Assembly: GCF_027214005.1 (NCBI RefSeq)
Contig: NZ_JAPWGY010000001.1
Span: forward strand, 868,001-932,000
Direction: 5' to 3'
From: Kiloniella laminariae
GTDB lineage: Bacteria; Pseudomonadota; Alphaproteobacteria; Kiloniellales; Kiloniellaceae
Length of the DNA: 64,000 nucleotides
The translations under genes were made by a program, and so were the position numbers. Position 1 is the first letter of the stretch, and every line of letters begins with the position of its first letter. Shown in pieces: positions 16,433 to 64,000 of this stretch. The notes below the pieces were generated by a model. That model was given only the letters and a program-made list of their open reading frames with translations. It had not been told where the DNA came from and made no database searches.

Positions 16433-17236
16433 TTACAGGCATTCCGGAGTTAGTGGGATCAGATCACTTTCAGCAATTAACGAAATATCATTACTGCCGC
16501 TAGGGACTAAACCAAATATCTCAAAATTCATTTTAACGAGTTTCTCAAGAAATGGCAGAGTATCTTCGATACACCTGCTAATACGATAGCCAGCCATGGC
16601 ATTAGCGGGTAGTGCTCCCTGTCCTTTTGGGAAATCAAATAATTTTGCCAAAAACATTAAAGGTTTGGGAATTTTGTTATGAAGCTCTTGAATTCGTGCT
16701 GAATTTGGGACAGAACCGCTTTGAAGCAGTCCCTCATAGTCTTTAACAATTTTCAAAAAATCTTCACTCTTAATTGCATATGTAGACAGCACCTCATGTG
16801 AACTTTCAGGGTGTTTGAGATACCATGCTCGTGCGAGAAGTTGGGCTTGTGTAATATTGAGAAAGATATGTTTCTTCCCTTCAAGTTGGCCGAAATGAAT
16901 CAAGGGAAGGACACCGCCAGCATAATTATCCACAAGAGATCCAGAAGACTGGACTAATATACGACCAGGTATAGAAATCATCGTTGGTGGCAAACCAGTC
17001 GAATTGACGACACGATAAATTGCTTTTACAAACTTCGCATATGCTGAATCATCTTTTCGACGAATATTTTCCTGATACAGACTTTCCAGTATATAATATT
17101 CAGTATCAATATATTTGTTTCTATTATCGCCCTCTTCTTGAGAGTGTGCCAAAAGAGAAAAACTACAAACAAGAGTTACTATAGTAATCAATGAGTTGCT
17201 TATTCTCTTACTACCACTTAGGAGAATATCTTTCAT
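16433..17236 (-). CDS. AT-rich exported protein of unknown function
   Basis: A 267-residue protein with a signal peptide (residues 1 to about 32: charged start, core LITIVTLVCSFSLLAH, then SQEEG). The mature part is mostly helical and has no motif I recognise; it contains GLPPTMISIPGRIL and KPLMFLAKLFDFPKGQGA. Base composition is clearly more AT-rich than its neighbours, which suggests recent acquisition. It has no obvious partner gene. The 200 bp beyond its stop, towards 16233, hold only purine-rich A tracts. Confidence 0.65.
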   Translation of the reverse strand: MKDILLSGSKRISNSLITIVTLVCSFSLLAHSQEEGDNRNKYIDTEYYILESLYQENIRRKDDSAYAKFVKAIYRVVNSTGLPPTMISIPGRILVQSSGSLVDNYAGGVLPLIHFGQLEGKKHIFLNITQAQLLARAWYLKHPESSHEVLSTYAIKSEDFLKIVKDYEGLLQSGSVPNSARIQELHNKIPKPLMFLAKLFDFPKGQGALPANAMAGYRISRCIEDTLPFLEKLVKMNFEIFGLVPSGSNDISLIAESDLIPLTPECL

Positions 17237-44634: not shown

Positions 44635-45216
44635 CTATTCGATCACGTCGCCTATACAGTTTACCAGGAGGTGATTGTTTCCAGAGAAACTTTCTATCAT
44701 TGCATTCATAAAATTCGTTTCATCAAGCCTGTCTTCAATGAATTTGAAGTTTGCATGTTCCACCAGCATTGTTAGCAAGGTTAGCTGGCAGCGTCCATTG
44801 CCTTCACGGAAGGGATGAACGGCATTGATTTCTGATAGATAATGGGCAGCGCGTTCCGAAAAATGGTTCTTGTCGGTGCTGTTTGACAGGTAGTTTTCTT
44901 TGGCCAGATCTGTGAATATTTTTTCCATGTAAGTATCAATATACTCGGGAAAACAAAACCAGTTCTCGCCTTTCCCGGTTCTGATCTCGCGTATTTTGCC
45001 AGCCCATTCATAAACATCCTGAAAAAAATGAAAATGAATGTCACGGTAATGGGCGTAATCCAGATTACCAACCGGAAGATCTTCCTCGGAACGGGTCAGA
45101 AACATCAATTGTTCAAACTGGTCGAGTTCGTCTTGCTCGGTCAGGTCTGCCTTGTTTCGGAGGACGTCTGAATCAGGATAACAAAGGGGATCTTTGACAG
45201 AGTTATATCGGCTCAT
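44635..45216 (-). CDS. fic: Fic-domain toxin with altered Fic motif
   Basis: A 193-residue Fic protein: CYPDSDVLRNKADLT at the start, YRDIHFHFFQDVYEWAGKIREI, and the active site HPFREGNGRCQL (His134, Glu138, Asn140, Arg142). In AMP-transferring Fic enzymes the motif ends in a second Arg that touches the ATP gamma-phosphate; here that position is Leu145. Most other features are typical of class I toxins such as VbhT. The gene overlaps the antitoxin stop by four bases (ATGA), so they are coupled. AMPylation of DNA gyrase/topoisomerase IV is the known target of related toxins; the present one may act differently. Confidence 0.88.
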   Translation of the reverse strand: MSRYNSVKDPLCYPDSDVLRNKADLTEQDELDQFEQLMFLTRSEEDLPVGNLDYAHYRDIHFHFFQDVYEWAGKIREIRTGKGENWFCFPEYIDTYMEKIFTDLAKENYLSNSTDKNHFSERAAHYLSEINAVHPFREGNGRCQLTLLTMLVEHANFKFIEDRLDETNFMNAMIESFSGNNHLLVNCIGDVIE

Positions 45217-47026: not shown

Positions 47027-47562
47027 CGTTATCACCCTCTGGTTGTTCTGGTGGGAACTTAACGTGAACAAAGTGCTGGCGCAATGGTTAATCGGAGAGA
47101 TTGTAAAAGGCTTGGTTAGATCTCTTGATGAATCAATGGAACGTGGGCGTAAATAGTTAAAAACAAAATAAAAATATAATCGGAATTTTGAAATAAGTAG
47201 TAACGACCAGCGTTTCAGGAAGGGTGGTTTTGCTCTCATACGTGAGCTTTAACTTCATGTGCCAAGGTTGTTGGATTAGGGGCAGTCTCTTCGTCTGGAA
47301 AAACCCGCGCACACAGGCAGTGGTGTGCAAACTCGGGGGCGAAAGGCTGAAATTGCAATCCCAGGAACGGAGAAGAACTGCGGTCGGGTTCTATAGCAGC
47401 TTAGCTTCATTATCAAACATTTACCTGAACCTAAATAGTTTAAGCTTTCCATGGAACATGAATTGCTCTTTGTAAGATAATTCAATATCTTATATAAGAT
47501 CGAATAAGTGGGATTACCAACCACTGACATCCCTTAATGAAGAGATTTTCGAAGGCAATAAT
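47027..47562. other. Gene-free spacer at the edge of the methyltransferase cassette
   Basis: A 536-bp region without a credible gene. Base composition falls from left to right as the AT-rich cassette begins. It holds AT-rich promoter-like DNA and the palindromes listed at 47473-47500. I see no tRNA gene or integrase at this junction. Confidence 0.5.
47473..47500. promoter_or_regulatory. Overlapping palindromes upstream of the methyltransferase
   Basis: TAAGATA-N6-TATCTTA (47473-47492) overlaps a perfect 14-bp palindrome ATCTTATATAAGAT (47487-47500), so three AAGAT half-sites alternate in orientation. They end 62 bp before the TTG start. A dimeric repressor site is the simplest reading. Confidence 0.5.
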
Positions 47563-49101
47563 TTGAGCTCAGATATCCATATTGTTGACTTGTTTTCTGG
47601 GCCTGGAGGTCTTGGTGAAGGTTTTTGTTCCGCGTCTGTGCTAAATACTGAACAGAAATATAGACTCGATGTGTCGATCGAAAAAGATTTGGCTGCTTAT
47701 AGGACACTTACTCTTCGTTCATTTCTGCGTAAATTCGACGAATATCCGCCAGAGTACTACAGTTGGCTGGCGAGTAACTCAAAAGAACCTGACTGGTCAA
47801 AGTTGTATCCTACCCAATGGGAAGAGGCTCAACGTGAAGTATGGTGTGCGGAGCTGGGGACTTCTAAGACCGCAGAAATGCTTTCACAAAGGATTCAAGA
47901 GATAAAGGCCGTTGCAGGTAGTCAGACGTTATTAATTGGCGGGCCACCGTGTCAGGCTTATTCGTTAGTGGGCAGGGCTCGTAACGCTGGAATAAAAGCT
48001 TACAAACCAAGTAGAGATCAGCGACATTTTTTGTACCGGGAGTATTGTCGCGTTTTATCTGATTTCTCTCCCAGCATATTTGTCATGGAGAATGTGAAAG
48101 GAATACTTTCATCTTCAGTAGAAGGTTCAATAATCTTTGAAGCTGTTTTGAGTGATTTGGAGGCTGCAGGGGAAGGTTATACTCTATTTGCGCTATCTCG
48201 TGCTGATCGATTGTGCAATAGACCTTCTCCAAAAGATTTTATTCTTAGATCGGAAAGCTTTGGTGTTCCTCAAGGGCGGCATAGAGTTATTATCGTTGGA
48301 ATAAAAAGATCGATTGCGGATAGATTACCTCCTGAACTCATACCTGTTCTTAATAAGCATATTCATCAGTCATGTGTGAAAGATGTTCTTGGAGGGATGC
48401 CTGAACTTAGAAGTGGCCTTAGCCGGAATGATGAAAAATTGGCTTGGTATGATGCGCTTGCTGTAGCTATCGACGAAGTGAATAATTGTCTTTCCGATTA
48501 TATGGGCAACAATAAAGAAAAATTTCTTGACGAGTTAAGGAGAGTAGAGAAAACCTTAAAAAATCCAAATAAAGAGCGTATATCACATTCCTCTTCGAGT
48601 TTTCTAAAAAGTATTTCGCAAGAGCTCTGTAACTTCTTAAGTGATGAGCGATTGAGCAAGCTATCTTGCAATGAAACTCGTGGGCATATGATTCCTGATC
48701 TTACACGATATCTTTTTGCTAGTTGTTTCGCAAAGGCCGAAAATAGAAGTCCCAAAGCTCCAGAGTTTCCTTCAAAACTCGCCCCTAGTCATGCAAACTG
48801 GGAGAGTGGCAAGTTTAACGATCGATTCCGCGTCCAGTGTTGGGATTCGCCGGCAACAACGGTTACAAGTCATATTTCAAAAGATGGGCACTATTACATC
48901 CATCCCGATGCTGCTCAATGTCGTAGTTTAACAGTCAGAGAGGCGGCGAGACTTCAAACATTCCCTGACAATTATCATTTTTTAGGCAGTCGGACTCAAC
49001 AATTTGTCCAAGTAGGAAACGCAGTTCCACCATATTTAGCTAAGCAAATCGCCGACGCTTTGCTCCCAGTTTTTAAATATATTGATACCTCTGGGTTGTA
49101 G
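47563..49101 (+). CDS. DNA C5-cytosine methyltransferase (Dcm type)
   Basis: A 512-residue enzyme with the ordered C5-methylase motifs: I (IVDLFSGPGGLGEGF, 7-21), IV (GGPPCQAYS, catalytic Cys130), VI (MENVKG), VIII (VPQGRHRVIIVG) and IX-X (RSLTVREAARLQTF then QVGNAVPP). The variable region between about 260 and 430 is long and contains its target-recognition domain; the recognised site cannot be read. The start is TTG 47563 with GAAGG 7 nt upstream. Low GC compared with the flanks. The next two genes run in the same direction, separated by 78 bp. No cognate endonuclease is present. Confidence 0.93.
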   Translation: MSSDIHIVDLFSGPGGLGEGFCSASVLNTEQKYRLDVSIEKDLAAYRTLTLRSFLRKFDEYPPEYYSWLASNSKEPDWSKLYPTQWEEAQREVWCAELGTSKTAEMLSQRIQEIKAVAGSQTLLIGGPPCQAYSLVGRARNAGIKAYKPSRDQRHFLYREYCRVLSDFSPSIFVMENVKGILSSSVEGSIIFEAVLSDLEAAGEGYTLFALSRADRLCNRPSPKDFILRSESFGVPQGRHRVIIVGIKRSIADRLPPELIPVLNKHIHQSCVKDVLGGMPELRSGLSRNDEKLAWYDALAVAIDEVNNCLSDYMGNNKEKFLDELRRVEKTLKNPNKERISHSSSSFLKSISQELCNFLSDERLSKLSCNETRGHMIPDLTRYLFASCFAKAENRSPKAPEFPSKLAPSHANWESGKFNDRFRVQCWDSPATTVTSHISKDGHYYIHPDAAQCRSLTVREAARLQTFPDNYHFLGSRTQQFVQVGNAVPPYLAKQIADALLPVFKYIDTSGL

Positions 49102-49179
49102 TGACAGCTTTCGCGTAGGTGGTAATGCTTGCCAATTCTTATTATATATGCCATTGAAATTTATGAATTTGGAGTTCTC

Positions 49180-51333
49180 ATGAAAGCATCATTTAAGCCA
49201 CGTGCGAGACTACTGAAATTGTTGGGTGATCAGTTGATTGGTACACCTCAACTGGCGGTGTTCGAGCTGGTTAAGAACTCTTACGATGCCGATGCGGACA
49301 GAGTTGAAATTACGATTCTGAATCCCGAAGATGTTTCAACGGCAAGTGTTGAAATCACTGACATCGGTGGCGAAGGCATGAGCCTTGATACAATTGTTAA
49401 TATATGGCTAGAGCCGGGGGCGGATCACAAGCAGACGAAGCGCAACCAAGGTAAGCGCACGGCTAAGCATAATAGATTACCCCTAGGTGAAAAAGGTGTA
49501 GGTCGATTTGCAGTCCATAAACTCGGACAGATCATTGAACTAACTACTAAAAATAAAAATAATCCTGAAATTTTTTTGAAGATCGATTGGGCTATTCTTG
49601 ATAGCTGTAAATATATCGAAGATGCAGAAATCGTGGTTGAAGAGCGGGAGATGCCACAAGTATTCACGAATGGAAGTACTGGGACGAGGATTGTCATAAA
49701 AGAACTGAATTCCAGCCTTACACGCGGAGATGTTAGAAATCTTTATCGAAACATTCAGTCAATCAAATCCCCGTTTGAGTTTGAGGCCTATCGACTAGAT
49801 AAATCAGCTTCAACCTTTGACGTTTCGTTGAGTGTCCCAGGTCATGATGACTGGACGATTGATCTTTTTGATCTGAAAGCGATAATTGAGCAATCTTTGT
49901 TCAGGTTTTCATTTTTGTTTTCTGAAGATAAGTGGTCATGGGACTATCAGTTTGCTCCTAACGAACAACTAAAAAAACAATTTAAAGTTGAAGGTCGCAA
50001 AGCGTCCGAGACAGACAGTTATCTTGAGTTGCCGAAAGGAAAGGTTGATCTGGAAAAAAATTTTCACGCAATTTACCAAACTGATCGTACTGATTTTTTA
50101 AAAGATCTTGGTCCTATATTAGGTGAGGTTTATGTCTTTGATTTTGACGCTGCGTTAGGGGAACAGAATGCCATCAAGAGGTGGTTGAGCGAAAATCAGG
50201 GAATACGTGTCTATCGCGATGGTATTCGTGTTTACAACTATGGCGAACCTAATGATGACTGGCTCGAGATGGACAGTCGGCGAGTAAACCGACTTGGTAA
50301 AGGTATTAATCGGAGAATTGCGGTAGGAGCTATTTCGCTAGAACTTGAGCATTGCCCAAATCTTATCGAAAAAACTAACAGGGAAGGCTTCATAGAAAAT
50401 GAAACTTTTTCCAAACTAAAAGCAGTCGTAAATTCTGCCCTCGGAAAACTGGAGAGCCTTAGACAGATCGACAAAGATAGACTTCGCCAAGTAACAAAAA
50501 AGTCCACCTCAATATCTTTTCTTGGGATAGACAATCCGGTTGATGAGTTGAAGCAAATTGCGATTGCTAACGGTTGGGAAGAACAGTTGGCTCCTGCCAT
50601 TAGACGTACTGAGAAACGCTACAATGAGATGCAAGACATCATGTTAACTTCAGGTATGGCTGGATTGAATATGACGCTCGCATTTCATGAGATACAGCAT
50701 GGTATATCTGATGCAAAAAAGAACCTGCTTGCAGGTAAAGATATTAGCATAGTGATAGAGCAGTTTGACCGATTTGAACTGCTCTTGGATACCTATGCAA
50801 ACTTGCTCAAGCAGGAGAAAGCTCGTGAATGGGAGCTAGCATCAATTCTGCAATCCAACGTGGATTTAGCCGATGTTCGCTTCACATTGCATGATATTAT
50901 TTATAGTTGCCCTGTCCTAACCGGGGAGCACCCGAACTTTATTATTAAGGCTCAACGAAACCTTATCATTAGTGCAGTTAATAACCTCATTGATAATTCG
51001 ATTTACTGGTTGGACAAGCGATGGGGTGGGGAGCTTAGCAAAAAATACATTCACATAGGTGTCAGTGAAGAGTTCGATAAAGGCCCTGCCATCGTAATCG
51101 CTGACAACGGGTCTGGGTGGCGAGATATAAGTAAAGGTGAAATGATTAAGCCATTCAGAACAACTAAGTCTGGAGGCATGGGTATTGGATTGTACTATAC
51201 GGATACGGTGATGCAGATGCTTGGAGGCGAACTTGTATTACTCGATCAGGGTGAAATTGATGGAGTTCCAGAGCAGGCAGACGGCGCAATTGTAGCGCTT
51301 GTCTTTAACGGAGGCACGCCTTGCAAGAAGTGA
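49180..51333 (+). CDS. Soluble protein with two GHKL ATPase domains; histidine-kinase-like
   Basis: A 717-residue protein. The N-terminal GHKL ATPase (HATPase_c_3) has FELVKNSYDADA (Asn33), DIGGEGMS (Asp61) and LGEKGVGRFAVHKLG. A middle region of about 350 residues follows. The C-terminus repeats a GHKL fold of the histidine kinase kind: AFHEIQHGI (His503, Glu504) on a helix, NLIDNSIYWL (Asn606), IADNGSGW (Asp642) and TTKSGGMGIGLYY. No membrane segment. It combines a MutL/MORC/Hsp90-like ATPase with a kinase core. The next gene encodes a receiver-like protein and overlaps by 13 nt. The start ATG 49180 has GGAG 5 nt before it. AT-rich. Confidence 0.85.
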   Translation: MKASFKPRARLLKLLGDQLIGTPQLAVFELVKNSYDADADRVEITILNPEDVSTASVEITDIGGEGMSLDTIVNIWLEPGADHKQTKRNQGKRTAKHNRLPLGEKGVGRFAVHKLGQIIELTTKNKNNPEIFLKIDWAILDSCKYIEDAEIVVEEREMPQVFTNGSTGTRIVIKELNSSLTRGDVRNLYRNIQSIKSPFEFEAYRLDKSASTFDVSLSVPGHDDWTIDLFDLKAIIEQSLFRFSFLFSEDKWSWDYQFAPNEQLKKQFKVEGRKASETDSYLELPKGKVDLEKNFHAIYQTDRTDFLKDLGPILGEVYVFDFDAALGEQNAIKRWLSENQGIRVYRDGIRVYNYGEPNDDWLEMDSRRVNRLGKGINRRIAVGAISLELEHCPNLIEKTNREGFIENETFSKLKAVVNSALGKLESLRQIDKDRLRQVTKKSTSISFLGIDNPVDELKQIAIANGWEEQLAPAIRRTEKRYNEMQDIMLTSGMAGLNMTLAFHEIQHGISDAKKNLLAGKDISIVIEQFDRFELLLDTYANLLKQEKAREWELASILQSNVDLADVRFTLHDIIYSCPVLTGEHPNFIIKAQRNLIISAVNNLIDNSIYWLDKRWGGELSKKYIHIGVSEEFDKGPAIVIADNGSGWRDISKGEMIKPFRTTKSGGMGIGLYYTDTVMQMLGGELVLLDQGEIDGVPEQADGAIVALVFNGGTPCKK

Positions 51334-52721
51334 TTAATGCCGTTGTAATTGATGATCAGATCAAAGATATCATTGGAGTAACAACCGCATTAGCTGAGCT
51401 GGGCATATCAACGCTTCCTGTGCATTACAAGGATCCAACCTTAGCGCGAGAGTTGTGCACGAAGGTATCGACGGCTTCTCCTAGAGTGATCATTACCGAT
51501 ATTCAACTCAGAGATGGTGGTATGGAACCAACAAAGTCGGACTTATCGAATGTTGCTGCTTGTTTGGGTAATATCGTCAGAGAAACAAAGGGTCCCTACG
51601 TAGTATTGGCTTGGACTTCGAAACCGGAAGCGCTTGGTGTTTTAAGGGCGAGGGTTGAAGAATATTTCACAAAATCCGGCATCAGGTTGCCGATGTACTT
51701 TGATAGTATCTGCAAAAATGAATGTAGTATCGGTGACAATGAGTATTCAGCAGCAGCGATACTCAAACAGTTCCAAACGCATTTGGAGGGCCAAGTATCT
51801 GTCAGAGCTCTTATGCATTGGGAGTGTAGTGTATTACAGGCTGCGATCGAAAGTGTTAATACACTATCAAGTCTTGACGAGGATACACTACCCCAGAACT
51901 TGAAGTCGCTCGCTATCAGTGTTGCCGGAAGTAACTTGAGGGGCTTTGAAGCGACAGCTATTAATGAGGCATTTTCATACGTTCTTAAGGACAAACTGGG
52001 GCTTCTTAGCCTTACTGATAACACTCAGGAAATTTGGAATAATGTGTTTGCTGAGGCTGCTGGCGTCGTGCATGAAACTTCGAAACATCAGCTAAACACA
52101 ATCTTACATATAGAAACCTCTCCACAAGATAAAATCATTTGCCCTGGAGATGTATGGATTTCTGAAAATCCTAAAACATTGTTTCAAAAGGTTGATGTTG
52201 GAAAAGAAGCGAACAATCAAGCGGAACGAATGAAGGACGAATTTCTTACCCTGACACAGAAGGGACACGCTCTAAACCAGAAAATAAGGGGTGAGACCGA
52301 TACAGAAAAAAAGTCAGGGCTCAAAACACAGTATCAAGAACTTTGTTCCACCCCGCTTCGTGTTGCAAAAACTGCTTGCAAAATAGCTATGGTAGAAATC
52401 AGCCCAGCGTGTGATTTTGCCAATCAAAAAAAACCTTTAAAAACGATAGCACTTGGCATCTTGGTTCCAGTGACGAGCATAACAAACGAAGTTCATTTAA
52501 AACAATCGGACTCAACAATAGTAGTCAAAATCATGCTCGATGGTACGAACTATCTCTTAGGATTTTCCTCTAAATATATCACAGCATTGTCCGAAAAAAT
52601 GATATTATCAGATGAATTGAAATTGACAAAAAAACTGCGAATTCGTGAGAGTTTATTGCAGAGTTGGATCCATCGGTTTTCAGCATATAACTCAAGAATT
52701 GGTACAATTTCTTTTCAATAA
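51321..52721 (+). CDS. Receiver-like protein with an unknown C-terminal domain
   Basis: A 466-residue protein. The first 125 residues look like a response-regulator receiver: NAVVIDDQIKD (acidic pair Asp11-Asp12), VIITDIQLRDGG (possible phospho-acceptor Asp60), and YVVLAWTSKPEAL (Thr/Ser position). The remaining 340 residues are unknown; they include a motif EISPACDFANQKK (Cys364-Asp365), a helical hydrophilic stretch (about 295-345) and a C-terminal basic region. No DNA-binding domain is recognised. TTG 51321 has GGAGG 6 nt upstream and lies inside the end of the kinase gene, implying coupled translation. Partner of the dual-GHKL protein by position. Confidence 0.75.
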   Translation: MQEVINAVVIDDQIKDIIGVTTALAELGISTLPVHYKDPTLARELCTKVSTASPRVIITDIQLRDGGMEPTKSDLSNVAACLGNIVRETKGPYVVLAWTSKPEALGVLRARVEEYFTKSGIRLPMYFDSICKNECSIGDNEYSAAAILKQFQTHLEGQVSVRALMHWECSVLQAAIESVNTLSSLDEDTLPQNLKSLAISVAGSNLRGFEATAINEAFSYVLKDKLGLLSLTDNTQEIWNNVFAEAAGVVHETSKHQLNTILHIETSPQDKIICPGDVWISENPKTLFQKVDVGKEANNQAERMKDEFLTLTQKGHALNQKIRGETDTEKKSGLKTQYQELCSTPLRVAKTACKIAMVEISPACDFANQKKPLKTIALGILVPVTSITNEVHLKQSDSTIVVKIMLDGTNYLLGFSSKYITALSEKMILSDELKLTKKLRIRESLLQSWIHRFSAYNSRIGTISFQ

Positions 52722-52775
52722 CTCGAATTTTTTCTGGGTTTTGACACATATGCAACTTATAGTAAGTCTCTCCCT

Positions 52776-52942
52776 TCACACCCAATCAACCGCTGCTTTC
52801 GGGGCAAGGAGGATGGCGAGGTCGCGGGGGTGGGTCAGGGCGCTGTAGAGGGTTTGTTTTTCCTCTGGCGTGGGGGCGCCCGGGAAGTTCGGGGTGTCTG
52901 TTGCGCTGGCTGTGGCTTTGCTGTCGGTTTTTGCCGGGGTCG
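52776..52942 (-). pseudogene. Duplicated 3' end of the topoisomerase-helicase gene
   Basis: This segment encodes about 50 residues nearly identical to the C-terminus of the protein at 54634-59061 (shared PNFPGAPTPEEKQTLYSALT and HPRDLAILLAPK), then breaks off. It has no start of its own and is a remnant or a duplicated junction. The stretch 52943-53242 beyond it contains no gene that I can support. Confidence 0.85.
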
Positions 52943-54633: not shown

Positions 54634-54800
54634 CTAAACCCAGTCGACGGCGGATTTGGGGGCGAGGAGGATGGCGAGGTCGCGGGGGTGGGTCAGGGCG
54701 CTGTAGAGGGTTTGTTTTTCCTCTGGCGTGGGGGCGCCCGGGAAGTTCGGGGTGTCTGTTGCGCTGGCTGTGCCTTTGTTGCCGCTTTTTGCCGGGGTCG
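54634..54800. repeat. 167-bp segment duplicated at 52776-52942
   Basis: This is the full-length gene's own 3' end. Its central 120 bp are almost base-for-base identical to the copy at 52776-52942, same orientation, 1.86 kb apart. Confidence 0.9.
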
Positions 54801-57800
54801 GGGCGATGATCAGGGCGGCGGTGCTTTGCTGGGCGCGGCTGCGCGGCGCGTGCAGGGCGTAGGCAAGGGACAGGCGGTCGAGTTCGTCAAAGGCGAGGTC
54901 GTGGCTTTTGCCCTGGAAGTCGATGGTCACCCGGCCTGTGTCGAGCCTCGGGCCACTATCCAACTGGGGGCCAGTCTCCAGCCGGGGGGCTGCATCCAAC
55001 TGCGGACCCGTGTCCGGTCGGGAGTTGTTTTCCAGATTTTGCGCGGATTCAGATGTCGCGTCTGTTGCCGCTTCTGTTACTGGTGACGTTCCGGCGGTCA
55101 GGGCGGCGGTGGCGGATACAGGCCGGGCAGACTGTGGGGTCAGGGGCGGCAGGTCATCGCGGGTGATGTCCTTGATGATACCACAGTCGCCCGCGAGCAG
55201 GTCGCGCTCGGGGTCATTATCGCTCACTGTAACCTTGTCACCAACCCTGAAACGCCAGCCGAAACGATCGACAAACAGGCCGTCTTCGGGCGGGTTGAGC
55301 AGCTGTTGCAGCCGCAGGTTCAGCTTGCGCGGGCCAAGCTCGCCGACCGCGGAAAGACAGATGATCTGCAGGTCCCTGAGCGGATCAAGCTTGAAGGATT
55401 TTGGCAGGCGGTTGGTGATGATTTCGGTGATCTTGCGCAGGCTGTCGGCCGGATCTGCGGCCTCGACCAGATAAAAGCTGCCCTGGGCGTTGGGCCCGGT
55501 TTTCAGGGTCACGGGCTTGCCATCCTTGATCCGCGAGGGGTGGGGATGTTTGTCCTCGGCGATTTTTTGCTGCATTTCTGCAGCTGGCTTTTCGCGCTTC
55601 AGGTTGGGCGGTCTGCCGTGGAACAGGCGCAGCTGGTTATCGGACAGGCGGTTGTGTTCCAGCTCTGGCGGCAGATCCCACAGCGCCAGCCAGGGCACAT
55701 CGGCCTGACGGGTCAGTTCTTCAAGCACCCGGCCCGATCCGGCGGCGGGCAGGCGGGTCATGTCATCGATCAGCAGCAGTCCGGCGTCTTCGGGCAGGGC
55801 GTCGAGTGCCGCCAGCAGCAGGGCGCGATCCATCAGCGCGGCAGAGGTAATCACCAGCAGCTGGCAGTCCAGCGGCTTGCGGTTTGTGTGTTTGAAGCTG
55901 CCTGTTTTGACGTTGTAATCCAGCAGCTTGACCAGAGAGGTGACGCCGAGGTCCTTGAGTGCCGGGTCTTTTGCCAGATCACGGGTCAGCGCGCGGGCCT
56001 CGCCAGCGCTGGTCGAGGTCAGGGCGATTTTGAAGCCCTTGGCTGAAAGGATGCGCAGGAAGGCGCGGGTGACGGTCATCTTGCCTGTGTTCGGGCTGCC
56101 ATTGAGCAGGCGGATCTTGCCCGTGTCGGGTTTGGCGAGCAGGCCGATCACCGTCTGTTTCTGGTTGATGGTCAGGGGGATCTTGCCCTTGTCCCGCACC
56201 CAGTCCACCGCCTTGTCGGCTTCGATATCCGCCCAGAGCGCGGTGCCAGTGCGCAAGGTCTTGAGCTGTTTGCCGATCTTTTGTTCCGCCTGCCAGTGAT
56301 CGCGCAGGATCAGCTCTTCGGCCTCGTAACCAGCAGGTTTTTCTTCATAGCGTTTGCGGTCCTTGACCAGATGGATCTGTTTGTCATCCAGTTCCGCCTG
56401 AAGCGCCGCTGTCAGCAGATCCAGCGGCAGGCCGAGGCGTTTTTCCAGCTGGCTGAGCAGGGCGTTCTTGCCGCGGTAATCCGCCGCCTGGGCCAGCGCG
56501 TGATAAAGCGCGGCACGGGCGCGGGGCAGGCTGTTGGCTTCCCGGCCCAGATGCCTGGCCAGGGTATCGGCCATGTCAAAGGGCAGGCCGCGGGTGAGGC
56601 GCAGGAAACAATAGGGATCGGCGCTGAGCAGATCGGCAATCTCGGCAGCTGTCTTGTCGGGCCAGGCCTGAAGCAGGCGCAGGGCGCGGCCGGGCTCAAC
56701 CCCGTGGCTGTGCAGAAAGCCGGAGAGTTCCTGCCCCCTGCGGCGTTCGTTGACCCAGTCGTTGAGCAAAGTGAGCTTGGCCTTGCTCAGGCCGAGGTCC
56801 TTGGCCTGAGCTTCCAGCTTTTCCGGTTGCTCGCAGATGACGGTGAAAGTCTCCGGCCCAAAGCTTTCCGCCAGCTGCTTGGCCGCCTTGGCCCCCAGTC
56901 CCCTGATCATGCCGCCGGAGAGCTGTTTTTCTATGCTGGCGATCTGGCGCTCGCGGACTTTCTCGGGACTTTCCGTCTTGCCCTTGCCGCCGAGATGTTC
57001 ATCGAGAAAGTCGCGGCAGGTCTCAAAGTCCGAGGTATAACCCTTGGGCAGTTTGAGGCCGCGGGCGGCGGCGATGGACTTTGCCGTTTCCTTCATCTTG
57101 TCGGTCGGTTTGCCCCGTCCGGCCCCCTTGGGCATGGCAACCCCGGTGTTGATCTTGGGGGCCGAGGCGGCGTTGGTCTTGATGATGTTGATCAGGCGGG
57201 CGGTGTCGTTGCCGATATCATCCCAGACCTTGCGGGCCGACTGTTTGCCCTCAAGCACGTCATCAAGATGCATTTCCCAGATCGCGGTCACGCCGGGATC
57301 AACCAGTTCAGGCGCGGCGGTCTTCAGCGTGGTGTAAAGCGTCAGGCCTGCCTCGGTCGGGATGATGTGCTTGCCGCTCTGGGCCAGAAAGTTCTGTACC
57401 TTCAGCCCGGTGATCACCGAGGCACGGGTGGCCGGGGTGCCGATGCCCTTGGCTTCCTTGAGCCGTTCTTTCAGCTCCTTGTCCTCGACAAAACGCCAGG
57501 CGTTCTGCATGGCATCAATCAGCGTGCCTTCGTTATATCTGGGCGGGGCCTTGGTTTTTTTGCTGTCGGTGGTCACGGGGGTCAGCGTGGCCAGGTCGCC
57601 GTCCTGCACCGGGGGCAGCTCGCGCCCGTCTTCGCTGGCGTCCTCGTCCTTTTTCTCCATCACATCGGTGTAGACCGCTTTCCAGCCCGGCTCCTTGGGA
57701 ATGTTCCCCGTGACCTTGAAGTCGAGGATCTTTTCCTTTCCCGCGCTGCCGTCCGGATTGGGCAGCGTCACAGGCACATCCATGGCCACGGTGGTGGACT

Positions 57801-59061
57801 CATAGATATAATCCGGCAGGAGAATGGCGAGGTAGGAACTGGCGACCAGATCAAACATGCGTTGTTCGTCTTCGGTCAGGCGCGGATAGATCGTGGTGAT
57901 CCGGTCCATGGTGTTCTTGTTCGGCACAATCGCGTGGTGCGAAACCCCCTTGAGCCCGGCGTCCGAGAAATGCCCGCTTTTGCCCTTGCGCACTTCGGGT
58001 TTGCTCAGGTCGATGTTCTGGTACTGCGGCAGACCCGTCAGGCCCTGAATGATCTCGCCGATGTCCTCGATCTGGTTTTCCGCCAGATAGCGAGATTCCG
58101 CGCGGGGGTAGGTCTGGATCTTCTTGCCTTCGCCGTCGTACAGTTCCTGCGCGATGTTCAGGGTCTTGTCAGCGGTCCAGCCCCAGCGGCGCGCGCAGAT
58201 CTTTTGCAGTTCCGGCAGATCGAGCAGGCGCGGCGGTTTGGTCGACTTGATCTTCTTCTCGGCCTTGATCGGCCCCTGATAGCCCTCGACCGCCGCGCGC
58301 AGGGCCTCGGCCTGATCCGGGTCGAGGATCTTGTCTTTCGGCGCATGGCGCAGGTCCAGCGTGCCGCTTTCTTCCCTCGGTTCGGCCTCTGTGCCCAGCT
58401 GCAGCGTGACATTGGCCGTGGCGACGAGGTGGAAATAGTCCTGGGGTGTGAAGTCCCTGATTTCCAGCTCGCGCATGCAGACAATCGCCATGGTCGGGGT
58501 CTTGACCCGGCCAATGCCGATGGCCCCGTACTGTCCGGGCTGTTTCAAGGCCACCGTCGCCGCGCGGGTCAGCGACAGGTTATAGACCTGATCGGCCTGC
58601 TGGCGCACAATCGCCGCCTGTCCGAGATTGAAATACTTCTCGTTCGGTTCCAGATGGGCAAAGGCATGACGCAGGGTCTTTTCATCCTGCGCGGTGAACA
58701 TGGCCCGTTCGACCTTGCCGGAAAACTTGTAGTGTCGCAGGATTTCTTCGCCGATCAGCTGGCCTTCGCGGTCACAGTCGGTCGCGATAATGACGCGGGT
58801 GGCGGTCTTGAGCGCATCGGCAATGGCCTGCAGCTTTGACTTGGCCGAGGGCGAGGCATCGGGCGCGGGGCAGGTGGGGTAAAAATCATCGGGCTTGAGC
58901 AGATCAAAGGACCAGCGCCCCCAGCTGCTTTCGACCTGCTGCGGTTCCTGCAGACTCAGCAGGTGACCCTCTGCCGGAAGAATGCGCCCGTAGTCATTGC
59001 CAATCGCCGCCTGGACATCCCGCTTCTGAGAGGTCTTTTCCGTAATAACTATGGTCGACAA
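54634..59061 (-). CDS. Topoisomerase III fused to a degenerate RecD2-like helicase
   Basis: A 1475-residue protein. Residues 1 to about 620 are a type IA topoisomerase: TOPRIM with VITEKTSQ and ATDCDREGQLIGEE, catalytic Tyr318 in QTYPRAESRY, and GIGTPATRASVI. From about 700 there are helix-hairpin-helix elements, a RecD2 N-terminal region (DPYCFLRLTRGLPFDMADTL), a P-loop LLNGSPNTGKMT (Lys994) and Walker B LLLIDDMTRL (Asp1099-Asp1100). In the C-terminal part the RecD2 signature HKSQGSE is replaced by HAPRSRAQQS (about 1400), and the arginine-finger block reads LYSALTHPRD. The topoisomerase looks active, the helicase probably not. TTG start with AAGGA 8 nt upstream. A 3'-end copy lies at 52776. 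Confidence 0.88.
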   Translation of the reverse strand: MSTIVITEKTSQKRDVQAAIGNDYGRILPAEGHLLSLQEPQQVESSWGRWSFDLLKPDDFYPTCPAPDASPSAKSKLQAIADALKTATRVIIATDCDREGQLIGEEILRHYKFSGKVERAMFTAQDEKTLRHAFAHLEPNEKYFNLGQAAIVRQQADQVYNLSLTRAATVALKQPGQYGAIGIGRVKTPTMAIVCMRELEIRDFTPQDYFHLVATANVTLQLGTEAEPREESGTLDLRHAPKDKILDPDQAEALRAAVEGYQGPIKAEKKIKSTKPPRLLDLPELQKICARRWGWTADKTLNIAQELYDGEGKKIQTYPRAESRYLAENQIEDIGEIIQGLTGLPQYQNIDLSKPEVRKGKSGHFSDAGLKGVSHHAIVPNKNTMDRITTIYPRLTEDEQRMFDLVASSYLAILLPDYIYESTTVAMDVPVTLPNPDGSAGKEKILDFKVTGNIPKEPGWKAVYTDVMEKKDEDASEDGRELPPVQDGDLATLTPVTTDSKKTKAPPRYNEGTLIDAMQNAWRFVEDKELKERLKEAKGIGTPATRASVITGLKVQNFLAQSGKHIIPTEAGLTLYTTLKTAAPELVDPGVTAIWEMHLDDVLEGKQSARKVWDDIGNDTARLINIIKTNAASAPKINTGVAMPKGAGRGKPTDKMKETAKSIAAARGLKLPKGYTSDFETCRDFLDEHLGGKGKTESPEKVRERQIASIEKQLSGGMIRGLGAKAAKQLAESFGPETFTVICEQPEKLEAQAKDLGLSKAKLTLLNDWVNERRRGQELSGFLHSHGVEPGRALRLLQAWPDKTAAEIADLLSADPYCFLRLTRGLPFDMADTLARHLGREANSLPRARAALYHALAQAADYRGKNALLSQLEKRLGLPLDLLTAALQAELDDKQIHLVKDRKRYEEKPAGYEAEELILRDHWQAEQKIGKQLKTLRTGTALWADIEADKAVDWVRDKGKIPLTINQKQTVIGLLAKPDTGKIRLLNGSPNTGKMTVTRAFLRILSAKGFKIALTSTSAGEARALTRDLAKDPALKDLGVTSLVKLLDYNVKTGSFKHTNRKPLDCQLLVITSAALMDRALLLAALDALPEDAGLLLIDDMTRLPAAGSGRVLEELTRQADVPWLALWDLPPELEHNRLSDNQLRLFHGRPPNLKREKPAAEMQQKIAEDKHPHPSRIKDGKPVTLKTGPNAQGSFYLVEAADPADSLRKITEIITNRLPKSFKLDPLRDLQIICLSAVGELGPRKLNLRLQQLLNPPEDGLFVDRFGWRFRVGDKVTVSDNDPERDLLAGDCGIIKDITRDDLPPLTPQSARPVSATAALTAGTSPVTEAATDATSESAQNLENNSRPDTGPQLDAAPRLETGPQLDSGPRLDTGRVTIDFQGKSHDLAFDELDRLSLAYALHAPRSRAQQSTAALIIAPTPAKSGNKGTASATDTPNFPGAPTPEEKQTLYSALTHPRDLAILLAPKSAVDWV

Positions 59062-61828: not shown

Positions 61829-63286
61829 ATGGCCAGGGTTGATCTGGACATTGCCGAGGATTGTGCGCGTTTTTATGCTGATCCGCTGGGGTTTGTGCTT
61901 TGGGCTTTTGACTGGGGCCGGGGCGATCTGGCGGATTTCGCCGGGCCGCGTGCCTGGCAGCGCGAATATCTGGCCCATCTGGGCGAGCAAATCCGCAGCA
62001 AGGGTTTTGACGGCGTGCATCCCGTTGCGCCAACCGATATTGCCACGGCATCAGGGCACGGTATTGGCAAGTCGGCCATGTCGGCCTGGCTGATCCTGTT
62101 TATTCTCTCGACCCGGCCCTTTGCCAAGGGTGTCGTGACATCGAACACCGGGGATCAGCTGCGGACCAAGACCTGGGCCGAGCTGGGCAAGTGGCATCGT
62201 CGTTGCCTGACCGGGCACTGGTTTCAGTACACCGCCAGCAAGGGCAACATGTCGCTGAGCCACAAAAGCCACGGCGAGAGCTGGCGCTGTGATGCCCAGA
62301 CCTGCCGCGAGGAAAATTCCGAAAGCTTTGCCGGGCTGCACGCCGCCAACTCGACGCCCTTTTACCTGTTTGATGAAGCATCGGCAGTACCGGATAAAAT
62401 CTGGGAGGTGTCGGACGGGGGCCTGACCGATGGCGAACCGATGCGTTTTGTCTTTGGCAACCCGACGCGCAATTCCGGGCGCTTTTTCGAATGTTTCAAC
62501 CGCCTGCGCCACCGCTGGCACAGCCGCCAGATCGACAGCCGCGCGGTCGAAGGCACAAATGCCGCGCTGATGCAGCAGTGGGTCGAGGACTATGGCGAGG
62601 ACAGCGATTTTGTTCGTGTGCGGGTGCGCGGGGTGTTCCCGCGGGCGGGCTCGACCCAGTTTATCTCTGGCCAGCTGGTGGCCGAGGCCCAGGCGCGCAA
62701 CCTGCCGCCACAGGCCGGGCAGGCGATTGTTATCGGTGTCGATGTGGCAAGGTTTGGTGATGACCAGTCGGTGATCCTGATCCGTCAGGGGCGCAAGCTG
62801 CTGGAAATCCGCAAATACCGGGTTGATACCATGGCGCTGGCCAGCTTTGTGATCGAGGCCATCGGGCAGTACAAACCCGACGGGGTGCTGGTCGACGGGG
62901 TCGGGGTTGGCGGCGGTGTGGTCGATCGGCTGCACCAGCTGGGCCATGATGTGATCGACGTCAATGCCGGGGCGGCGGCGCAGGACCAGAAGACCTACCT
63001 CAACAAACGCGCCGAAATGTGGGGTCGCCTGCGCGACTGGCTCAAATCAGGCGATATTCCCGCCGACGACCCGGAACTGGAAACAGATCTGACCGGGATC
63101 GAGTACGGCTTTGATGCCAAAAACCGCCTGCAGCTGGAGAAAAAAGCCGATATGAAAAAGCGCGGCCTGCACTCGCCCGACGTCGCCGACGCGCTGGCCC
63201 TGACCTTCGCCGAACAGGTGGTCAAATGGGGCGACGATATCGGCGACTTCGATACGGCGATTATGGATTACGAACCGGGAGGGTAA
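61829..63286 (+). CDS. Phage terminase large subunit
   Basis: A 485-residue packaging motor. The ATPase half has Walker A GHGIGKS (Lys81), Walker B FYLFDEASAV (Asp182-Glu183) and a coupling region around FGNPTRNSGRF. The nuclease half, RNase H fold, has IGVDVARFGDDQSV (Asp305), VDGVGVGGGVVDRL and HSPDVADALALTF. All catalytic acids are visible, so it may be functional. ATG 61829 is the start suggested by the domain; an upstream TTG at 61787 is possible. Only TerS and TerL are seen; no portal, capsid or integrase lies in the window. Confidence 0.88.
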   Translation: MARVDLDIAEDCARFYADPLGFVLWAFDWGRGDLADFAGPRAWQREYLAHLGEQIRSKGFDGVHPVAPTDIATASGHGIGKSAMSAWLILFILSTRPFAKGVVTSNTGDQLRTKTWAELGKWHRRCLTGHWFQYTASKGNMSLSHKSHGESWRCDAQTCREENSESFAGLHAANSTPFYLFDEASAVPDKIWEVSDGGLTDGEPMRFVFGNPTRNSGRFFECFNRLRHRWHSRQIDSRAVEGTNAALMQQWVEDYGEDSDFVRVRVRGVFPRAGSTQFISGQLVAEAQARNLPPQAGQAIVIGVDVARFGDDQSVILIRQGRKLLEIRKYRVDTMALASFVIEAIGQYKPDGVLVDGVGVGGGVVDRLHQLGHDVIDVNAGAAAQDQKTYLNKRAEMWGRLRDWLKSGDIPADDPELETDLTGIEYGFDAKNRLQLEKKADMKKRGLHSPDVADALALTFAEQVVKWGDDIGDFDTAIMDYEPGG

Positions 63287-64000
63287 GGGAGTGCAATTTG
63301 TGTAAGCTCATTAATCTTTCTGGATAATGAAGGTCTACCCAGTATTGACGTTCCTATAGAAAAATAGGTGGCAAAATTTGTTTTTGTTAATAGACCATGA
63401 ATTTCTTGTGCAAGGTTTTTATCTTTGTTGTGCTTTGAGTATTCTTTGCGTTTTATTTCAAATTCTTGCTCATATAGTTCAGTATAAATTTTGTCACGTG
63501 CTAAATAAAATATTGTTTCGAAATCGGCTAACTCATCAATTGAAAAGTGATTTTCGATTTTTTTTATTACTGAATGTCTAGCCTCCTGTGCTCGTCTACA
63601 TTCCTTGCTACTATAATTATTGGGAGGAAGTCGAAATCCTGGTGCCCTTGGTGGGTGAATTTGTAACCATTGCTGAATGAGAAAAAGAGCACGATCATCT
63701 CTTATATGTAATAGTTCGTGTTCGATATCAATATTGGTACACATTTCGCGATTTATTAGTATTTTATCTAATGCTAATGAAAATTGTTTATTTGAGAGGC
63801 CATATCGTTTTTTTATTATAGTTTTAATGGTGTTAAATTCTGATCGACCCCAGTCACTCCTTTTTGGTAACATCTTAGAAATGTTAAATAAATCATTTCT
63901 GGAGCATTTGGAGGTATGTGATTTTGTTTTTATTTCTCTGCAATAATCAAATGTTCTATATTTTAGATCAGATAATATTTTCGATAGTGATTTTAAACTA
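63268..64000 (-). CDS. AT-rich protein, 5' end beyond the right edge
   Basis: The frame runs open from the window edge to a stop at 63268, giving at least 244 residues of C-terminal sequence; an ATG at 63873 is internal to this open frame and need not be the start. The part near 63720 has IDIEHELLHIRDD, an HExxH that could be a zinc-peptidase motif but may be chance. No family is recognised. The protein is lysine- and tyrosine-rich and the DNA very AT-rich, so it is likely acquired. It overlaps the end of TerL by 19 bp on the opposite strand. Confidence 0.55.
   Translation of the reverse strand, partial: SLKSLSKILSDLKYRTFDYCREIKTKSHTSKCSRNDLFNISKMLPKRSDWGRSEFNTIKTIIKKRYGLSNKQFSLALDKILINREMCTNIDIEHELLHIRDDRALFLIQQWLQIHPPRAPGFRLPPNNYSSKECRRAQEARHSVIKKIENHFSIDELADFETIFYLARDKIYTELYEQEFEIKRKEYSKHNKDKNLAQEIHGLLTKTNFATYFSIGTSILGRPSLSRKINELTQIALPYPPGS

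What the first reader, a model, noticed from the sequence alone, without database searches (positions are those of the whole stretch)
47563..52721. Methyltransferase, dual-GHKL kinase-like protein and receiver-like protein form a candidate new defence system
Three AT-rich genes in one direction encode a C5-cytosine methylase, a protein with both a MutL/MORC-type and a histidine-kinase-type GHKL ATPase domain, and a receiver-like protein with a new 340-residue C-terminal domain. The last two overlap by 13 nt. GHKL ATPases are known beside methylases in restriction-type systems, and phosphorelay-based phage defence exists (Detocs), but I do not recall this exact trio. No endonuclease is present, so methylation may mark self DNA while the relay triggers the unknown C-terminal effector. 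The function is inferred.
Basis: partly seen in the sequence, partly recalled or inferred. Interest (0 to 1): 0.85.

Follow-up and report, generated by a model that had tools for sequence, protein, structure and literature searches.

The report
Methylase-linked two-component module, new clade
Three neighbouring genes pair a DNA-marking enzyme with a kinase and its receiver protein, a recurring set already predicted in 2021 to belong to bacterial restriction-modification loci; this copy lies in a separate, widespread branch that nobody has tested, probably a mobile defence cassette.

Summary
Window 47563-52721 holds an intact C5-cytosine methylase, a 717-aa protein with an N-terminal MutL/MORC-type GHKL ATPase plus a histidine-kinase core (H503), and a 466-aa protein whose N-terminus carries all receiver residues (D11, D12, D60, T99, K132) and is modelled as a receiver. 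Genes 2 and 3 overlap by 13 nt.

The trio is not unknown. Bellieny-Rabelo et al. 2021 (PMC8011034) described the same layout (HATPase_c_3-HEF_HK-HATPase_c kinase, Response_reg_2 regulator, C5 methylase, restriction-modification genes). The window proteins do not match those Pfam models; gene 2 falls in a separate, fully supported clade spanning at least seven phyla. The "new" C-terminal domain of gene 3 appears to be the shared output domain of the wider family (invariant CD motif, terminal RxG).

In 20 of 20 clade loci genes 2 and 3 are adjacent; 19 of 20 have a C5 methylase within about 7 kb; Vsr and various endonucleases often join. Genes 2 and 3 co-evolve (r=0.96); methylases are exchanged more freely. 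A same-genus genome carries a different GHKL gene at the same site.

Most likely: a methylation-linked, phosphorelay-gated restriction-type defence. Function, phosphotransfer and effector are inferred. New variant of a known, untested kind.

The parts
47563..49101 (+). Gene 1: C5-cytosine DNA methyltransferase, 512 aa, TTG start, all catalytic motifs present
   Evidence: PF00145 2e-42; TIGR00675 dcm 137.9 bits over cut-off 100.65; motifs located
49180..51333 (+). Gene 2: soluble dual-GHKL protein, 717 aa: MutL/MORC-type ATPase + middle domain, then DHp helices with H503 and HATPase_c
   Evidence: PF13589 and PF02518; AF2 model and Foldseek to SMCHD1, MORC3, MORC2, MutL and HK853; HMMER to LvrB and MutL structures
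50686..50691 (+). Codons of H503 and E504 (H-box, predicted phospho-accepting histidine)
   Evidence: invariant in 14 of 14; aligned with the LvrB HEIN histidine; codon position
49360..49380 (+). Motif II of the first GHKL domain reads DIGGEGM, one residue longer than DxGxGM in all aligned relatives
   Evidence: alignment of 14; possible effect on ATP binding unknown
51321..52721 (+). Gene 3: receiver-like protein, 466 aa, TTG start; REC domain about residues 1-140, then alpha-helical linker and output domain with CDxA motif and terminal SRxG
   Evidence: alignments, AF2, Foldseek, profile comparison with related regulators
51498..51500 (+). Codon of D60, predicted phospho-accepting aspartate
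   Evidence: invariant in 14 of 14; codon position
52410..52421 (+). CDxA motif (C364-D365-F-A367) of the output domain
   Evidence: invariant in the clade; CD also invariant in PF19192 proteins
51321..51333 (+). 13-nt overlap of genes 2 and 3 (translational coupling likely)
47093..52771 (.). Segment exchanged at a variable site between a DJ-1/PfpI gene and the 3' end of a topoisomerase/RecD-like gene
   Evidence: a same-genus genome (G007) has the same flanks with a different 657-aa GHKL gene between them

Best explanation
The cassette is a mobile restriction-type defence module in which DNA methylation is coupled to a soluble two-component relay. Gene 1 methylates cytosines of the host's DNA (activity inferred from intact motifs). 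The MutL/MORC-type ATPase of gene 2 acts as an ATP-driven clamp that engages DNA and responds to foreign (unmethylated or otherwise abnormal) DNA (inferred). That state switches the histidine-kinase core, which phosphorylates itself on H503 and passes the phosphate to D60 of gene 3 (inferred from invariant residues). Phosphorylation releases the output domain of gene 3 (CDxA...SRxG), which either acts itself or recruits and activates a nuclease; several relatives encode a nuclease beside it, this copy does not. Shown by computation here: the domains, the conserved catalytic residues, the fixed pairing of genes 2 and 3, the association with C5 methylases, and cassette exchange at one chromosomal site. 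Not shown: phage protection, the signal, phosphotransfer, and the effector activity.
For: Genes 2 and 3 are adjacent in every locus found and their identity matrices correlate at r=0.96, against 0.53 and 0.60 with the methylase, so the pair is the unit and the methylase is more often exchanged. C5 methylase within about 7 kb in 19 of 20 loci. Relatives sit with Vsr, HNH_2, AspBHI-type, HaeII, Z1 and MORC genes, that is in restriction-modification loci. H503/E504, N-, G1- and G2-box residues and receiver residues D11, D12, D60, T99, K132 are conserved. Gene 2 models onto MORC/SMCHD1/MutL/Hsp90 and onto the HK853 kinase core. Low G+C and replacement by a different GHKL gene, with weak likeness to PADLOC TmtA, at the same site in a same-genus genome. 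Published large-scale linkage of the sister family to R-M genes (PMC8011034).
Against: No member of this family was found with a published phage test in the papers searched. No nuclease or other effector is recognised in the window, and the model of gene 3 is of modest confidence (mean pLDDT 68). PADLOC holds no model that fits genes 2 and 3 beyond weak REase_II likeness of the first ATPase. The first ATPase of this copy has a one-residue insertion in motif II. Phosphotransfer rests on conserved residues only. Loci were partly found by a conserved-motif scan, which may favour some lineages.
Confidence: 0.52

Rival explanations
1. Genes 2 and 3 form a regulatory two-component system that tunes expression or activity of the neighbouring restriction-modification genes (the reading suggested in PMC8011034), and are not themselves part of the attack.
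For: The published authors propose signalling that controls R-M; some loci carry a complete type II R-M pair beside the module, for example HaeII with its own methylase in L015.
Against: No DNA-binding domain is recognised in gene 3 or its relatives; several loci, the window included, have no restriction enzyme to regulate; the kinase has an ATPase clamp in place of a sensor domain.
Confidence: 0.17
2. Gene 2 is an ATP-dependent restriction subunit of the paraMORC/BbrUII-HgiDII type; gene 3 is its partner, and the kinase-like part works by ATP-driven shape change without phosphotransfer.
For: The first GHKL domain matches the BbrUII/HgiDII restriction-enzyme model over residues 44-209 (79 bits) and PADLOC REase_II; MORC/MutL ATPases act with nucleases (PMC2292703).
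Against: The match is far below the model's cut-off of 550 bits; H503 is invariant and all five receiver residues are kept, which is hard to explain without phosphotransfer.
Confidence: 0.15
3. The module is an epigenetic regulator or selfish element with no defence role; the methylase is orphan and the relay reports methylation state to the cell.
For: No endonuclease in the window; intact methylase; no Vsr anywhere in the genome.
Against: Repeated association with restriction and repair nucleases across at least seven phyla, plasmid carriage, fast divergence of gene 3, and position at a site that carries a different GHKL gene in a same-genus genome.
Confidence: 0.1
4. The copy in this window is decayed: it lost its nuclease, or its first ATPase is impaired by the motif II insertion, and it no longer functions.
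For: DIGGEGM in place of DxGxGM, seen in none of 13 aligned relatives; no nuclease in the cassette.
Against: All three frames are open, overlaps and ribosome-binding sites are kept, all other motifs are intact.
Confidence: 0.08

Closest known systems
HEF_HK (PF19191) / Response_reg_2 (PF19192) predicted two-component system of Bellieny-Rabelo et al. 2021 (PMC8011034)
   Same: Order methylase - HATPase_c_3/DHp/HATPase_c kinase - receiver-like regulator; adjacency; Vsr and R-M neighbours; CD motif and terminal SRxG in the regulator; homologous kinase over its length (hhalign 100%, E 1e-49).
   Different: Window proteins do not match the two Pfam models; kinase about 720 against about 1000 aa, regulator 466 against about 590 aa; gene 2 lies in a separate clade.
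paraMORC / MORC ATPases of R-M systems (Iyer et al. 2008, PMC2292703)
   Same: N-terminal GHKL plus middle domain, location in R-M gene clusters with methylases and Vsr.
   Different: A histidine-kinase core follows and a receiver protein is encoded next door; no helicase in the window.
Detocs phage defence (from memory, paper not read)
   Same: Histidine kinase and receiver used in a defence cassette.
   Different: No nucleosidase-type effector domain found on the receiver protein; a methylase and a MORC-type ATPase are present.
BbrUII/HgiDII family type II restriction enzymes (NF050001)
   Same: Related N-terminal GHKL domain (79 bits).
   Different: Far below the cut-off of 550 bits; the C-terminal half here is a kinase core.
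VcSduA-type Shedu (paraMORC3; PMC12137116)
   Same: GHKL ATPase as the control domain of a defence protein, shown needed for protection in that system.
   Different: The nuclease is fused to the ATPase there; here no nuclease is recognised and a kinase/receiver pair takes its place.

Membership tests
HEF_HK / Response_reg_2 two-component-like family (PF19191, PF19192) | Match to the Pfam models | tested here: not met
   No PF19191 or PF19192 match for window genes 2 and 3 at E up to 1; no PF19192 in 14 clade members at E up to 10, while true members match
HEF_HK / Response_reg_2 two-component-like family (PF19191, PF19192) | Kinase with HATPase_c_3, DHp-like region with invariant H followed by E/D, and HATPase_c | tested here: met
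HEF_HK / Response_reg_2 two-component-like family (PF19191, PF19192) | Receiver-like regulator gene adjacent to the kinase gene | tested here: met
   13-nt overlap in the window; 20 of 20 clade loci
HEF_HK / Response_reg_2 two-component-like family (PF19191, PF19192) | Common descent of the kinase with PF19191 proteins | tested here: met
   hhalign 100% probability, E 1e-49; but separate clades, each 100/100, sister relation only 80/88
HEF_HK / Response_reg_2 two-component-like family (PF19191, PF19192) | Common descent of the regulator's output domain | tested here: inconclusive
   Shared CD and SRxG motifs; hhalign score 31.8 against at most 17.4 in 40 shuffles, E 3e-4, but a short aligned stretch of 34 columns
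Type II restriction-modification | DNA methyltransferase | tested here: met
Type II restriction-modification | Cognate restriction endonuclease | tested here: not met
   None recognised in 47563-52721 or directly beside it
Classical two-component response regulator (PF00072) | Receiver domain with DD, D, T/S, K | tested here: met
   residues and fold; a sequence match to PF00072 is not reached by the window protein, only by Campylobacter-type relatives, below the curated cut-off
Classical two-component response regulator (PF00072) | Phosphotransfer from the kinase | not testable with these tools
   needs biochemistry
Detocs | Receiver protein with purine nucleosidase-like effector | tested here: not met
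   no Pfam match in the output domain; the feature itself is recalled from memory
paraMORC ATPase | N-terminal GHKL + middle domain, in an R-M neighbourhood | tested here: met
   Foldseek to SMCHD1, MORC3, MORC2, MutL; neighbourhoods
BbrUII/HgiDII restriction enzymes (NF050001) | Score over the curated cut-off of 550 bits | tested here: not met
   79 bits over residues 44-209

The most novel reading that the evidence does not exclude
Restriction decided by phosphorelay: the gene 2/gene 3 pair is itself the restricting machinery, plugged onto exchangeable methylases, with the CDxA/SRxG output domain of gene 3 as a previously unknown effector fold switched on by phosphotransfer from a MORC-type DNA clamp.
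Probability: 0.2. Interest if true: 0.82.

Novelty: new variant of a known kind. Interest (0 to 1): 0.5.

Why it matters
If right, it would join three things usually studied apart: self-marking by DNA methylation, MORC/MutL ATPases, and histidine-aspartate signalling. The family was predicted in 2021 without, as far as the searched papers show, any functional test, and this clade is not seen by the existing Pfam models, so it would be missed by current annotation. The minimal three-gene copy here, without extra nuclease, is a clean object for asking whether the pair alone restricts DNA, and the same question bears on what MORC proteins do with DNA.

Tried and rejected
Detocs membership: rejected, no nucleosidase-type domain. 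BbrUII/HgiDII restriction enzyme: only the first ATPase is alike, 79 of 550 bits. Vsr as the effector: thought unlikely, since Vsr repairs deaminated 5mC beside C5 methylases and one relative (L024) has an HhH-GPD glycosylase at that place; inference. Full-length profile comparison of regulators from the two families was weak (E 2e-3); trimming to the C-terminus helped. Phage-borne copies: no relative in viral contigs; one 5.5-kb unverified faecal 'phage' scaffold carries the trio but may be bacterial DNA. Promoter and terminator scans gave no clear excess over shuffles.

Full report
Observation. The window (strand +) holds three open frames at 47563-49101, 49129-51333 and 51321-52721. The better start of the second is ATG at 49180, with GGAG just upstream; the third starts with TTG behind GGAGG and overlaps the second by 13 nt. 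The cassette has 41.9% G+C against 55-57% around it. The gap between genes 1 and 2 is 78 nt.

Gene 1 is a C5-cytosine DNA methyltransferase (PF00145, 2e-42; dcm model over its cut-off) with all catalytic motifs. Its target sequence cannot be told from these data.

Gene 2 has PF13589 and PF02518 domains. An AlphaFold2 model from 14 sequences (mean pLDDT 75.5) matches SMCHD1, MORC3, MORC2, MutL and Hsp90/TRAP1 over its first part and HK853-type kinase cores over its last part. A profile search of PDB sequences finds histidine kinases over residues 470-683 and MutL over 24-93; in the LvrB alignment the His of 'HEIN' falls on H503. H503-E504, the N box, G1 and G2 are kept in all 14 aligned sequences. 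One oddity is that motif II of the first ATPase reads DIGGEGM, one residue longer than in every aligned relative.

Gene 3 matches no Pfam family. Its first 140 residues carry D11, D12, D60, T99 and K132, of which D11 and D60 are invariant in 14 sequences and the others conserved with few exceptions. The model (mean pLDDT 68, but 75-86 over most of the N-terminal domain) has the receiver order of strands and helices, and Foldseek returns receivers of NtrX, CheY and Spo0F with probability 1.00, E about 2e-3. Related regulators of the Campylobacter type match PF00072 by sequence, though below the curated cut-off (2e-5 and 1.5e-6). So the receiver reading is well supported. The rest of the protein has an invariant C-D-x-A motif and an invariant R-x-G near the C-terminus.

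Co-occurrence. tblastn in plasmids found relatives of gene 3 in seven records (Agrobacterium, Rhizobium, Burkholderia); in the five whose surroundings were read, gene 2 lies directly upstream, with methylase, Vsr and sometimes a type II enzyme close by. A scan of one genome per species found 14 more loci, from Bacteroidota, Chlorobiota, Chloroflexota, Verrucomicrobiota, Acidobacteriota, Cloacimonadota and Pseudomonadota. Counting distinct loci (window, L002-L005, L011-L016, L018-L024, L044, L100), gene 2 lies next to gene 3 in 20 of 20, and a C5 methylase lies within about 7 kb in 19 of 20, the exception being a Magnetococcales contig. In 398 sampled genomes of the phylum the family occurs in three, each time as the pair. 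Vsr is present in 14 of 20. Recognisable restriction endonucleases (HNH_2, AspBHI-type with Mrr catalytic domain, HaeII, or annotated type II enzymes) are close in seven. The window has neither, and its genome has no Vsr. These counts are of loci found by search, not of a random sample.

Co-evolution. Over 16 loci the identity matrices of genes 2 and 3 correlate at r=0.96, while those with the methylase correlate at 0.53 and 0.60. Close pairs of loci inflate all three values, but the difference fits a fixed kinase-regulator pair and exchangeable methylases of several subfamilies. Gene 3 diverges much faster (20-25% identity to the window) than gene 2 (34-42%).

Wider family and prior art. The literature search found the key paper: Bellieny-Rabelo et al. 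2021 (PMC8011034) predicted HEF_HK (PF19191) and Response_reg_2 (PF19192), 91.6% linked in 644 regions, with C5 methylases and R-M genes around them, and the predominant kinase architecture HATPase_c_3+HEF_HK+HATPase_c. Real members fetched here show methylase, about 1000-aa kinase, about 590-aa regulator and often Vsr. The window proteins do not match these models, but the kinases are homologous (hhalign E 1e-49). The regulators share the CD motif and terminal SRxG; the profile score of their C-terminal parts, 31.8, exceeds all of 40 shuffles, whose highest was 17.4, though the aligned stretch is short. The Campylobacter-type regulator aligns with the window's over most of the output part (193 columns, E 2e-3). 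A maximum-likelihood tree of 38 kinases puts the window in a clade of 18 with 100/100 support, separate from the HEF_HK clade (100/100) and the Campylobacter type (100/100); the sister relation to HEF_HK is weakly supported, 80/88. Other branches use N6-type methylases, some with a metallo-beta-lactamase-fold protein in line. The 2021 paper lists Azotobacter, Rhizobium, Agrobacterium and Chlorobium among its Vsr-bearing loci; since the A. vinelandii genome examined here has this clade and no PF19192 match, the authors' clusters may already have included it. That is inference.

Mobility. A same-genus genome has the same left flank (YaeQ, DJ-1/PfpI) and right flank (topoisomerase/RecD-like gene), but between them a 657-aa GHKL protein with weak likeness to PADLOC TmtA (E 3e-8) in place of the three genes. 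Together with low G+C, plasmid carriage of relatives and integrases near two of them, this supports a mobile cassette at a variable site.

Mechanism. The most likely reading is a restriction-type defence in which the methylase marks self, the MORC-type ATPase engages DNA, and a His-Asp relay from H503 to D60 releases the output domain of gene 3, which either acts or recruits a nuclease. Domain content, residues, pairing and context are shown; the signal, phosphotransfer, effector and protection are inferred. Rivals are a regulator of R-M genes, a relay-free ATPase restriction subunit, an epigenetic or selfish element, and a decayed copy.

Verdict. Real, conserved and interesting, but a new variant of a kind already predicted in print and not yet, in the papers searched, tested by experiment.

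Noticed in passing
52780-52942 and 54638-54800: 163-nt direct repeat (93% identical): the 3' end of the large topoisomerase/RecD-like gene is duplicated just behind the cassette, bracketing an AsnC-type regulator and an isochorismatase gene; suggests a separate insertion or rearrangement at the same site.
   Followed up: partly
54634-59061 (-): 1475-aa fusion of a type IA topoisomerase (Toprim + Topoisom_bac) with RecD2-like HHH, AAA and SH3 helicase parts in one frame.
   Followed up: no
44635-45216 (-): Fic-family gene of 43% G+C, strong match to PADLOC candidate PDC-S04 (1.8e-66) and similar to the VbhT and E. coli Fic models; no antitoxin was looked for.
   Followed up: no
L098:2182-4152 (-): In a same-genus genome, a 657-aa HATPase_c_3 protein with weak likeness to TmtA sits at the site of the cassette; candidate defence gene.
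   Followed up: partly
L006:4637-9771 and L007:4622-9791: Related cassettes with an N6-type methylase, dual-GHKL kinase, short receiver protein (227-228 aa) and a metallo-beta-lactamase-fold protein in line, in Hymenobacter and Burkholderia plasmids.
   Followed up: no
16433-17236 (-) and 63268-63873 (-): Two low-G+C frames (38% and 34%) without Pfam match in a 53% G+C window.
   Followed up: no
49360-49380: One-residue insertion in motif II of the first GHKL domain (DIGGEGM), unique among 14 aligned sequences.
   Followed up: partly
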